A program made the translations under genes and the position numbers. Below the pieces are notes generated by a model, which saw nothing but the letters and a program-made list of their open reading frames with translations, was not told the DNA's origin and did no database searches. 34,528 nucleotides of DNA, taken from assembly GCA_017828975.1 (NCBI GenBank), contig JAGAJN010000021.1, positions 1-34,528 of the forward strand, written 5' to 3'. Positions 49 through 29,577 of the stretch are shown piece after piece. Each line of letters begins with the position of its first letter. The stretch's first letter is position 1. Source of the stretch: Oscillospiraceae bacterium (GTDB lineage: Bacteria > Bacillota > Clostridia > Oscillospirales > Ruminococcaceae).

Positions 49-228
49 CATCTCTTTAGTGACCTATGTCAGTTTGTGCAACTCCCGCAGAGGGGACAAC
101 CTTATAGGGGCGGGGGACAGAATAAACCCAACAAAGCGAGGACTTTCCCCCGCCCCTAACGGTTTTCCCCTCTGCACTCCTCTTTCCCTCTCACCCCACC
201 CTCTTTTCCTCGCTTTGCATTTTGATGA
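49..228. repeat. Structured dispersed repeat, copy 1 (predicted pseudoknot)
   Basis: This element is clearly homologous to 26869-27046. Three inverted-repeat arms are visible. Arm A is 87-101 with 161-175 (15 positions, one mismatch). Arm B is 107-117 with 146-156 (11 perfect pairs). Arm C is 132-142 with 207-217 (11 perfect pairs). The first C strand lies inside the loop of B and its partner lies outside A, so C crosses A and B as in a pseudoknot. Between the copies, arms A and C keep pairing through paired base changes. The ends carry no terminal inverted repeat, so it does not look like a transposon-derived MITE. The direction of transcription is unknown. Small open frames inside it are not convincing. 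Confidence 0.8.
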
Positions 229-26762: not shown

Positions 26763-26868
26763 CATCAACTACACTAATCTTTTATCAGCATATAGGCTAT
26801 TTTTGCAAGTATATTTCTGTGATGAGAATAGGGTAATTTGAATTTTTGCTACACATTCTTTTCTCTCA
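26763..26868. other. Intergenic stretch, nothing recognised
   Basis: AT-rich DNA lies between the operon-end hairpins and the second structured repeat. No coding, RNA or promoter signal is convincing. Confidence 0.4.
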
Positions 26869-27046
26869 CCATCTTTGTGACCTTCGTTTCTTTTGTGGCT
26901 CTCCCGCAAAGGGGGAACCTATATGGGCGGGGGACACAACAAACCCTAACGCAAAGCAGGGAGTTTCCCCCGCCCCTAACGGTTCCCCCTTTGCAAACCC
27001 CTTCCCTTTCACCCCACCCTCTTTACCCTGCTTTACATTTTGGTGA
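26869..27046. repeat. Structured dispersed repeat, copy 2 (predicted pseudoknot)
   Basis: This is homologous to 49-228 in the same orientation. Arm A is 26906-26919 with 26981-26994 (14 perfect pairs). Arm B is 26925-26934 with 26966-26975 (10 pairs). Arm C is 26953-26961 with 27026-27034 (9 pairs), again crossing the other two. Relative to copy 1, arm C changes GA to AG on one strand and TC to CT on the other, and arm A has a G-C to A-T change. Pairing is therefore preserved despite divergence. Both copies sit upstream of a carbohydrate-enzyme gene, GH94 and GH95, on the same strand. Confidence 0.8.
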
Positions 27047-27306
27047 AACGATAAAAATTGCATTTCTGTCGGAAGATAGTTAAAAAAGCTGTCAGAACTG
27101 CTGTTTATTGGCAAATAGTAAATTGATGTCAATTTTGGCTTGATATTTTGTATATAAAGTGATTAAATATTAGCATAAAATTCTAACCGAAGTCTGGCGA
27201 TTTTACATAGATTTTACATTCAGCATAAAACAGTTTTTACTTTGCTGACGTATAATCTTTTGTAAGCTGACAGACAACGGAACTTCAAATATCGGAGGTC
27301 GTTATT
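27047..27306 (+). promoter_or_regulatory. Region upstream of the GH95 gene
   Basis: This is AT-rich DNA. TATAAT at 27251-27256 could serve as a -10, but I find no good -35 at the right distance. GGAGG at 27294-27298 is the ribosome site for the next gene. No operator palindrome is clear. Confidence 0.35.
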
Positions 27307-29577
27307 ATGAGCAGCTCAACTACACTTTGGTACACCGAGCCCGCCGCCAACTGGGACGAGGCGCTTCCTGTGGGCAACGGTCGTATCGGCGGAATGATAT
27401 TCGGCAAGGTAGGCGACGAGCTTATCCAGCTGAATGAGGATTCTGTATGGTCGGGTAATTTCCGCAGCAGAAATAATCCCAAGGCTTACCCAAATCTCGG
27501 CAGAATGAGGGAGTATATCAACAACGGTCAGTTAAAGCTTGCCGAGCAGCTTTGTCTGGACGCTTTCTGCGGCTCCAACGAAAATCAGCGTCACTATATG
27601 CCCGCAGGCGACCTGCACATCTATCAGAGTGTCAGCGACAACTGCACCGATTACAGCAGAATGTTGGAGCTGAATACCGCCGTTTCCACCACCTCCTACA
27701 CCTCCAACGGCATCAACTTTATCCGCACAATTTTCGTTTCCAAGCCCGATGAGGTAATGGTCATCTCCGTTAAGTCGGACACTCCGGGGACGGTTTCCCT
27801 GTCTGCCTGTCTTGACGGTATGGACGATTATTACGATAAAAACTGCGCTTACGATTCCAATACTATCCTGTTCACCGTTTCAAACGGGATCCCCTACGCA
27901 ATTGCAGCGTCCTGTACGGCTGTGAACGGAAAGGCGTCCGTTTACGCAAACAGGCTGATGGTGGAAAATGCGGACGAGGCTCTTATCATTCTGGGTATCC
28001 AGACCTCCTGGAGAACGGGTGACTATGAGAATCTGGCTGTCCGTCAGGTAAAGGCTGCCTGCCGAAAGGGCTATGAAAAGCTGTTAAAGCGTCATCTGGA
28101 CGATTACAGACCGCTGTTTGAACGCTGCTCGCTTAGCTTGAACGACAACAGCGAGGGCGCATGCGAAATGCCCACCGACCTGCGTATCAAGAGAATGGGA
28201 GAGGGCGGCAAGGATAACAAGCTGATGGAGCTGTACTTCAACTATTCCCGCTACCTGATGATAGCGGGCAGCCGTGAGGGTACTCTCCCGCTGAACCTTC
28301 AGGGTATCTGGAACAAGGATATGTGGCCTGCATGGGGCTGCAAGTACACCGTCAACATCAATACCGAGATGAACTACTGGGGCGCAGAGATATGCGGTCT
28401 GCCCGAATGTCATATGCCCCTTTTCGACCATATCGAGCGAATGAGAGAGCACGGCAGAGTCACCGCACGGGAAATGTACCGCTGCAGAGGTGCTGTCTGC
28501 CATCATAATACCGACATATGGGGCGATACCGCTCCGCAGGACAAGTGGCTGCCCGCTACGCTGTGGCCTATGGGACTTGCGTGGCTCTGTCTGCATATAA
28601 TGGAGCATTACCGTTTTACGCAGGATAAGGATTTCCTTGCCGAAAAGTATGATACCATGCGTGAGGCTGCGGAGTTTTTCGTGGACTTCCTTGTGGAGAA
28701 TGAGGACGGCTGTCTGGTAACAAGCCCCTCAGTATCTCCCGAAAACACCTACCGCACCGCCTCGGGTCAGGAGGGCACTATCTGCAAGGGACCGTCTATG
28801 GACAGTCAGATGCTTTACGAGCTGTTTACCGCAGTTATCGACTCTTCGGAAATTCTCGGAGAGGATAAGGCGTTTGCCGAAAAGCTCAGGGGACTTCGTG
28901 AAAGACTTCCCAAGCCGCAGATAGGCAAGCACGGTCAGATAATGGAATGGGCTGAGGACTACGACGAGGTAGAGCCGGGACACAGGCACATTTCACAGCT
29001 TTTTGCGCTCTATCCCGCAGATATTATAACTATGCGTGAAACTCCCGAGCTGGCAGCAGCCGCAAGAAAGACCATCGAAAGACGTCTGGAAAACGGCGGC
29101 GGTCACACAGGCTGGTCGAGAGCGTGGATAATCAATATGTGGGCAAGACTTTGGGATAAGGACAAGGTCTACGAGAACGTTACCGCTCTTATCGGACGCT
29201 CTACCAATCCCAATATGCTGGACAGCCACCCGCCCTTCCAGATAGACGGAAACTTCGGCGGCGGCGCAGGCATCGCAGAAGCGCTTGTTCAGAGCTGCGG
29301 CGGAGAGATAGCTATCCTGCCCGCTATCCCCGATGAATGGGAGAGCGGCACGGTGAGAAAGCTTCGTGCAAGAGGCGGCTTTGAGGTGTCGGCTGCGTGG
29401 GAAGGCGGCAAGTTCGTCAGGGGACGCATCTGCTCCACAAAGGGCGGTGTCTGCCGTCTTTACAGCAAAAATCCCTTTACCGTTTCCTGCGGCGGAAGGC
29501 TTGTTAACTTTGAATACACAGATAATGTTTATATTTTCGACACTGTTCCCGGCGGTGTTTACGAGATAATGCCGTAA
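27307..29577 (+). CDS. GH95 alpha-L-fucosidase-family enzyme, intracellular
   Basis: The 756-aa protein opens with LWYTEPAANWDEALPVGNG, the hallmark of the GH95 N-terminal domain. It continues into an alpha/alpha-barrel and a C-terminal beta part. GH95 enzymes remove alpha-1,2-linked L-fucose (some L-galactose) with inversion. The expected active-site residues are present: the asparagines in NINTEMNYW (Asn350, Asn352), the acid in SPSVSPEN (Glu479) and the aspartate in QIDGNFGG (Asp647). There is no signal peptide, so it acts in the cytoplasm on imported material. GGAGG precedes the ATG by 8 bases. Its position after the importer operon suggests it trims the imported glycan, but a 650-bp gap separates them. 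Confidence 0.92.
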   Translation: MSSSTTLWYTEPAANWDEALPVGNGRIGGMIFGKVGDELIQLNEDSVWSGNFRSRNNPKAYPNLGRMREYINNGQLKLAEQLCLDAFCGSNENQRHYMPAGDLHIYQSVSDNCTDYSRMLELNTAVSTTSYTSNGINFIRTIFVSKPDEVMVISVKSDTPGTVSLSACLDGMDDYYDKNCAYDSNTILFTVSNGIPYAIAASCTAVNGKASVYANRLMVENADEALIILGIQTSWRTGDYENLAVRQVKAACRKGYEKLLKRHLDDYRPLFERCSLSLNDNSEGACEMPTDLRIKRMGEGGKDNKLMELYFNYSRYLMIAGSREGTLPLNLQGIWNKDMWPAWGCKYTVNINTEMNYWGAEICGLPECHMPLFDHIERMREHGRVTAREMYRCRGAVCHHNTDIWGDTAPQDKWLPATLWPMGLAWLCLHIMEHYRFTQDKDFLAEKYDTMREAAEFFVDFLVENEDGCLVTSPSVSPENTYRTASGQEGTICKGPSMDSQMLYELFTAVIDSSEILGEDKAFAEKLRGLRERLPKPQIGKHGQIMEWAEDYDEVEPGHRHISQLFALYPADIITMRETPELAAAARKTIERRLENGGGHTGWSRAWIINMWARLWDKDKVYENVTALIGRSTNPNMLDSHPPFQIDGNFGGGAGIAEALVQSCGGEIAILPAIPDEWESGTVRKLRARGGFEVSAAWEGGKFVRGRICSTKGGVCRLYSKNPFTVSCGGRLVNFEYTDNVYIFDTVPGGVYEIMP

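What the first reader, a model, noticed from the sequence alone, without database searches (positions are those of the whole stretch)
49..228. Pair of about 180-bp repeats with a covarying pseudoknot
Copy 1 (49-228) and copy 2 (26869-27046) share three long stems in which arm C crosses arms A and B. Between the copies, arm C changes two adjacent pairs on both strands and arm A changes one pair on both strands, so pairing is kept while sequence drifts. Such compensatory change argues for selection on structure, in RNA or folded DNA. There are no terminal inverted repeats and no open frame of substance. Both lie on the same strand upstream of a glycan-enzyme gene (GH94, GH95). I do not recognise a known RNA family.
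Basis: partly seen in the sequence, partly recalled or inferred. Interest (0 to 1): 0.78.

Follow-up and report, generated by a model that had tools for sequence, protein, structure and literature searches.

The report
Mobile repeats encoding locked triple helices
The two repeats belong to a family of small mobile DNA elements in bacteria of one family whose core appears selected to fold on one strand into a triple helix clamped by a pseudoknot, probably as DNA rather than as a gene-control RNA.

Summary
Both copies and their pairing are real: stems A and B, and a helix C crossing both, with compensatory changes. First, the C/T-rich tail between stem A and the second C strand mirrors the stem's pyrimidine arm. 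In 105 elements from 29 genomes it matches its own stem in parallel register, as a triple helix requires (p<=0.05 in 56, against 4 for the antiparallel control), and better than stems of other genomes (permutation p=0.0005). The window copies are not significant alone. Wobble asymmetry (92 against 22) and third-strand letters favour the G-rich reverse strand and a purine-motif DNA triplex. Second, the core is mobile: about 23 places in this genome; copy 2 lies in a 404-bp element with degenerate inverted repeats; 7 of 10 copies with both ends have identical 3-bp flanks. In another genus it rides a different element flanked by duplicated terminator-like hairpins. Orientation to genes is even, so a cis-regulatory RNA is unlikely. 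Closest known kind: intrastrand-triplex (PIT/BoxC/TM) repeats. This is a longer, pseudoknot-locked, transposon-borne variant. Formation in cells and function are untested; published in-vivo tests of the E. coli motif were negative.

The parts
87..175 (+). Copy 1 hairpin: stem A 87-101/161-175, stem B 107-117/146-156, read on the + strand; the proposed structured strand is the complement
   Evidence: model R1 hit
132..141 (+). Copy 1 pseudoknot strand C (CAAAGCGAGG) in the hairpin loop
176..207 (+). Copy 1 tail = proposed third strand, mirror of the 3' arm (17 of 30 ungapped matches; not significant alone)
208..217 (+). Copy 1 pseudoknot strand C' (CCTCGCTTTG)
26772..27175 (.). Copy 2 whole MITE-like element (404 bp) with degenerate terminal inverted repeats; flanks cta/taa, so no identical duplication at this copy
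26772..26797 (+). Left terminal inverted repeat
27160..27175 (+). Right terminal inverted repeat
26906..26994 (+). Copy 2 hairpin: stem A 26906-26919/26981-26994, stem B 26925-26934/26966-26975
26952..26961 (+). Copy 2 pseudoknot strand C (CAAAGCAGGG)
26995..27025 (+). Copy 2 tail = proposed third strand (16 of 28 ungapped matches; not significant alone)
27026..27035 (+). Copy 2 pseudoknot strand C' (CCCTGCTTTA)

Best explanation
The core is a structure-selected DNA motif. When that strand is single (replication, repair, supercoiling or transposition) the hairpin forms, the third strand lies antiparallel in its major groove (G*G-C, A*A-T, T*A-T triples), and the pseudoknot helix locks the far end. 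The core is spread as a module inside small non-autonomous transposable elements: in the window's genus, one with TACTAAT inverted repeats probably moved by an IS630-like transposase; in another genus, one that inserts at terminator-like hairpins. Shown: pairing, pseudoknot, in-register mirror covariation, dispersal and insertion. Inferred: formation in the cell, DNA rather than RNA, and the role, most likely a polymerase or fork block that helps the element persist or amplify rather than control of neighbouring genes.
For: Triple helix (105 unique elements, 29 genomes): parallel score above antiparallel in 87, equal 11, below 7; p<=0.05 against shuffled tails 56 parallel, 4 antiparallel; p<=0.01 31 and 0; at least one p<=0.05 element in 21 of 29 genomes against 3; own arm 7.77 against other genomes' arms 4.95, permutation p=0.0005 in each of 8 draws (the floor of 2000 permutations); within genomes, arms differing at 6 or more sites, own beats other in 161 of 256 ordered pairs, equal 30, loses 65. 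Triple covariation in the genus (the 25 copies caught by the pattern): stem C-G with tail A 18, A-T with tail T 6, A-T with A 1, C-G with T 0. Strand: reverse-strand G.T 92, A.C 22; tail A at 63 of 542 A-T pairs and 20 of 722 G-C pairs, first six positions left out, as expected if T*A-T is allowed. Pseudoknot: 33 of 83 own against 50 of 6398 swapped. Mobility: identical 3-bp flanks in 7 of the 10 copies that I judged to show both ends; orthologous places without the element for the 2 copies tested; duplicated terminator-like hairpins at both ends in G132 5 of 7, G512 3 of 3, G507 1 of 5, other-copy controls in these genomes at most score 10; a transposase beside a similar terminal repeat.
Against: Neither window copy is significant alone (p=0.79 and 0.27). 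Elements are related, so counts are not independent and shuffles keep only base composition. 7 of 105 elements fit antiparallel better, and the antiparallel own-versus-other test reached p=0.0115 in one of 8 draws (median 0.11). An earlier, cruder base definition gave a weaker wobble asymmetry (97 against 65). No pseudoknot run of 9 or more was found in G064, G118, G132, G239, G291, G507, G512, G003, G027, G113, G117 and G433. Replication-strand bias was inconsistent. For the E. coli motif, in-vivo footprints did not support stable triplex formation and in-vivo tests of polymerase block showed no effect (PMC4666352). 11 of 57 elements lie inside a mechanical open frame of 100-135 aa. The G001 place that lacks the L011 element holds another small inverted-repeat sequence. 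No right end was found near the own-genome transposase.
Confidence: 0.62

Rival explanations
1. A pyrimidine-motif triplex on the strand the reader described, as RNA (U*A-U, C+*G-C), with the C/U-rich loop in the major groove of a long H-type pseudoknot: a mobile structured RNA.
For: The same parallel covariation and the same pseudoknot; pyrimidine-motif triplexes can form in RNA while purine-motif ones cannot (stated in PMC4666352, introduction).
Against: Most triples would be C+*G-C, needing protonation (established chemistry); tail A is enriched at A-T pairs and stem mismatches are mostly A.C rather than G.T on this strand; even orientation to genes. Transcription itself was not examined.
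Confidence: 0.22
2. A G-quadruplex or plain hairpin repeat, the mirror tail being low-complexity drift of a purine/pyrimidine tract.
For: A G4 pattern lies on the minus strand of copy 2; the tails are C/T-rich; each window copy alone is not significant.
Against: Own-versus-swapped tests use real tails and still separate; stem changes are followed by the tail within one genus; helix C has no place in a quadruplex.
Confidence: 0.1
3. A cis-regulatory RNA or attenuator upstream of glycan-enzyme genes.
For: Both window copies precede GH94 and GH95 genes.
Against: Orientation classes are even over 57 loci and the element is mobile.
Confidence: 0.04

Closest known systems
Intrastrand triplex motifs: PIT elements / BoxC / TM_ECO (Holder et al. 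2015, PMC4666352; abstract, most of the introduction, several sections read)
   Same: Intergenic dispersed repeats with third strand, purine arm and pyrimidine arm on one strand; purine motif; no strand bias; sometimes in inverted pairs (as in G093 here). On its G-rich strand ours has the order of their class I.
   Different: TM_ECO is class II with 9-nt stems and short loops; their finder allows stems 6-15 and loops 1-6, so by reading its rules (I did not run it) the window copies with loops near 30 nt would be missed. Ours has a third strand of about 30 nt, a pseudoknot clamp, cross-genus covariation and transposon carriage; they report no mobility association. The word pseudoknot does not occur in their main text.
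Recurrent G-rich repeats of Methanomicrobiaceae that switch between triplex and G4 (PMC8044849; passages seen)
   Same: G-rich third strand, GCA loop, GC hairpin, antiparallel triplex shown for oligonucleotides.
   Different: Archaea, short; 'transpos' occurs 0 times in the main text; no pseudoknot in the passages seen.
MITEs of the IS630 family (name recalled)
   Same: Copy-2 type: terminal inverted repeats, about 400 bp, a similar repeat beside a transposase with HTH domains and a sub-threshold DDE_3 match.
   Different: Carries a large internal structured core that also rides elements with other ends.
IS1272/TnSha1 of the IS1182 family (PMC4923244; passages seen)
   Same: Enters terminator hairpins without a sequence consensus.
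   Different: Deletes part of the hairpin without target duplication; the g16 elements are flanked by duplicated hairpins.

Membership tests
Intrastrand triplex motif (class I, purine) | Order third strand - purine arm - pyrimidine arm on one strand | tested here: met
   Reverse strand of the core; class definition read
Intrastrand triplex motif (class I, purine) | Third strand matches its own duplex by triplet rules above chance | tested here: met
   For the family: 56 of 105 elements and own-versus-swapped p=0.0005; not for the window copies alone
   By reading: hairpin loop about 30 nt in both window copies; ITxF was not run; hence filed as a variant, not a member
Intrastrand triplex motif (class I, purine) | Triplex forms in the isolated strand | not testable with these tools
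   needs CD, NMR or footprinting
IS630-type MITE (copy 2 and sisters) | Terminal inverted repeats shared with a transposase-bearing element | tested here: inconclusive
   Left-end match with 2 mismatches upstream of the own-genome transposase and in G001; no matching right end found in the fetched stretch
IS630-type MITE (copy 2 and sisters) | Target duplication | tested here: inconclusive
   Identical 3-bp TNA flanks in 7 of 10 copies but not at copy 2, L015 or L021; a TA duplication is expected for IS630 from recall
Known structured RNA family | Rfam match at gathering score | tested here: not met
   0 matches in the window and in 12 chosen loci

The most novel reading that the evidence does not exclude
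A pseudoknot-locked intrastrand DNA triplex has been maintained by triple covariation across many genera and has been recruited by unrelated transposable elements because the folded single strand itself does something for them, such as stalling the replication fork or being recognised as DNA. That would be a functional folded-DNA module of mobile elements for which I found no described counterpart.
Probability: 0.35. Interest if true: 0.88.

Novelty: new variant of a known kind. Interest (0 to 1): 0.72.

Why it matters
Bacterial triplex repeats have been known since around 2000 without evidence, in what I read, that the triplex is what selection sees. Here the third strand follows its own stem across genera, which is comparative evidence that triplex geometry is kept, and it sits in elements that move. 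That makes the question of whether triplexes form and act in cells testable with natural variants and compensatory mutants.

Tried and rejected
Antiparallel pairing of the tail with the 5' arm (strand exchange): not supported. Cis-regulation: not supported. Replication-strand bias: G132, 37 copies, 23 against 14 tallied by hand from the list and the GC skew of 20 sampled stretches of 20 kb, with a post hoc 15 of 15 near the presumed origin; G000 and G001 25 of 34 one way, G006 7 of 20 the same way; no consistent rule. Rfam at permissive threshold. An exact 22-base core pattern had no match in viral contigs. Range: at E<=0.001 the model is in 20 of 146 family genomes, 23 of 394 order genomes and 5 of 398 phylum genomes; these are sampled genomes with strict filters and only the best 23 or 8 candidates per genome scored, so they are lower bounds; every genome whose best E is below 1e-8 is in the window's family. 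The first wobble count used a poor definition of the hairpin base and was replaced; both are told. Rows dropped: L081 (tail cut by a contig end); L006 and L010 (coordinate errors of mine); duplicates; and one of the two elements of L133, lost by a name clash in my script. The 105 elements come from the loci given by the searches plus 60 regions fetched, not from every hit listed. Short hairpins without pseudoknot (G153, G177, G238, G095, G036 and others) were kept in the counts although their kinship with the long form is uncertain. Literature searches; no paper describing this family appeared among the rows listed; subscription journals are mostly not held. On re-checking, confidence in the best explanation was lowered from 0.66 to 0.62 because the negative in-vivo results for the E. 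coli motif and the missing right end had been left out.

Full report
WHAT IS THERE. The two repeats are as described in their pairing. Copy 1 has a hairpin at 87-175 and copy 2 at 26906-26994, each with an outer stem A and an inner stem B, and a helix C between the loop and a strand beyond the hairpin. The statement that there are no terminal inverted repeats is wrong for copy 2.

COPIES. The window is a whole contig of a 2.57-Mb genome in 39 contigs. The core occurs at about 23 places there (22 after setting aside three reverse-strand self matches, one more); several lie at contig ends, so a few may be halves of one copy. The one other genome held of the same genus, G001, has 14 places among 15 matches, one of only 34 bases. 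An exact core pattern was found in five stretches of an uncultured Ruminococcus sp. MAG, CAMCRP01, whose contig lengths equal those of G001. A covariance model of 14 sequences with stems A and B only finds the family at E<=0.001 in 20 of 146 sampled genomes of the taxonomic family, 23 of 394 of the order and 5 of 398 of the phylum; only the best candidates per genome were scored, and weak short hits are uncertain.

THE THIRD STRAND. In the long elements a C/T-rich tail of about 30 bases separates the hairpin from the second pseudoknot strand. In G093 it is by eye an almost ungapped parallel complement of the purine arm, which antiparallel pairing does not explain. I tested this on 105 unique elements of 29 genomes. 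Aligned from the hairpin base, the parallel match beats the antiparallel control in 87, ties in 11 and loses in 7. Against shuffled tails (base composition kept) p<=0.05 in 56 parallel and 4 antiparallel; p<=0.01 in 31 and 0. The stronger test uses real tails: a tail matches its own arm (mean 7.77) better than arms of other genomes (4.95), permutation p=0.0005 in all 8 draws of one element per genome; antiparallel 3.78 against 3.39, median p 0.11, lowest 0.0115. Within genomes, among 256 ordered pairs whose arms differ at 6 or more sites, own beats other in 161, ties 30, loses 65. Both window copies are unremarkable on their own (p=0.79, 0.27), so the claim rests on the family.

COVARIATION OF THREE BASES. 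In the genus, one stem-B pair is C-G or A-T. The tail base opposite is A with C-G (18) and T with A-T (6), with one A-T/A exception and no C-G/T (25 copies caught by the pattern). Read on the reverse strand these are T*C-G and A*A-T.

WHICH STRAND, WHICH MOLECULE. Wobble-type mismatches in the stems are 92 A.C and 22 G.T on the forward strand, that is mostly G.T on the reverse strand. A cruder definition gave 97 and 65. Beyond the first six positions the tail carries A at 63 of 542 A-T pairs and at 20 of 722 G-C pairs; swapped tails in an earlier version showed no such difference (6 of 174, 7 of 221). Both fit a purine-motif triplex on the G-rich strand, where T*A-T is allowed. Purine-motif triplexes do not form in RNA according to work cited in PMC4666352, which is why I favour DNA. 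These counts are over related sequences and are supportive, not conclusive.

PSEUDOKNOT. Exact complementarity of 9 or more between loop and post-tail strand occurs in 33 of 83 elements with a long hairpin, against 50 of 6398 swapped combinations. It is seen in G000, G001, G006, G020, G093, G097 and G441, with quite different sequences, for instance AAAAGTACGACA, AAAAATCGGCA, AAAGCCGCC and AAAAGTGCGGC. Twelve other genomes with long hairpins gave no such run.

MOBILITY. Copy 2 spans 26772-27175. Of 37 copies of the genus examined, I judged 10 to show both ends; 7 of these have identical 3-bp flanks (TAA six times, TTA once), while copy 2, L015 and L021 do not. AT-rich sites make some agreement likely by chance. 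For two copies, L011 and L027, the orthologous place in the other genome lacks the element: the flanking match pieces are 582 bases apart against 155, and 574 against 75. The spacers have diverged, so the junction is not resolved to the base, and the first place holds another small inverted-repeat sequence. A transposase with HTH domains and a sub-threshold DDE_3 match lies beside a similar left terminal repeat in both genomes; I call it IS630-like from recall, and found no matching right end. In genus g16 the core sits in a different element of about 510 bp flanked by direct duplications of a hairpin that looks like the target's terminator (by eye): 5 of 7 in G132, 3 of 3 in G512, 1 of 5 in G507, none in the other-copy controls of these genomes. 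In other genomes long flank matches were absent or not above the control, or were single cases that I did not count. In G097 the repeated unit is only about 190 bp and begins at the hairpin base. The same core thus rides elements with different ends, so I read it as a module and not a transposase end.

CONTEXT. Of 57 loci, flanking genes are ++ 17, -+ 14, +- 13, -- 12, with one lacking a left gene; 11 lie inside a mechanical open frame of 100-135 aa. Position upstream of GH94 and GH95 is therefore not informative.

COMPARISON. The kind is known: potential intrastrand triplex elements, BoxC or TM_ECO (PMC4666352; abstract, introduction part 1, and sections 10, 15, 16, 18 and 20 part 1 read, plus passages), and archaeal G-rich repeats that fold into an antiparallel triplex in vitro (PMC8044849, passages). 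What differs is length, the long loop, the pseudoknot clamp, the covariation and the transposon carriage. IS1272 of the IS1182 family also enters terminator hairpins but deletes part of them (PMC4923244, passages). I therefore rate this a new variant of a known kind. The role of the fold is inference: such motifs are reported to block DNA polymerase in vitro, without promoter or terminator activity, but with no effect found in vivo, and footprints of TM_ECO did not show a stable triplex in cells. A fork or polymerase block that favours the element is my best guess, not a result.

Noticed in passing
L015, L017, L018, L019, L020, L021, L022, L031, L037, L043, L051 and g16 copies L190, L193, L197, L199, L203, L204: Small hairpins are inserted at a few fixed places inside the stem arms, in the window's genus and in g16, with different sequences; branching hairpins would leave the main stem intact.
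   Followed up: partly
G093:C5:110131/110383, C7:45331/45581, C17:35668/35918: Elements occur as inverted pairs about 250 bp apart, like the inverted TM_ECO pairs reported in E. coli.
   Followed up: no
L194, L200, L205, L209, L211, L213: Left ends of the g16 element continue into other sequence instead of an intact core.
   Followed up: no
G132, 37 places: Orientation of copies along the chromosome is clumped in long runs; inversions or a strand preference could cause this.
   Followed up: partly
window 49-52/224-227 and 26867-26870/27042-27045: A possible outer 4-bp stem (CATC/GATG in copy 1, CACC/GGTG in copy 2) also keeps pairing; seen by eye only.
   Followed up: no
[quoted passage not shown]
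   Followed up: no
G001 contigs C33, C32, C23, C50, C55, C94, C3: Contigs end inside copies of the terminal repeats, so these elements break assemblies and copy numbers are probably underestimates.
   Followed up: partly
L027 flanks, L316, L317, L318: A second small palindromic repeat (GGGTGTTCCCCCGCC...GGCGGGGGAACACCC or close variants) lies next to element ends in the genus.
   Followed up: no
G001:C40, about 27340-27445 (L320): The place orthologous to the L011 insertion holds a different small inverted repeat (TACTAAACAC...GTGTTTAGTA), perhaps another miniature element.
   Followed up: no
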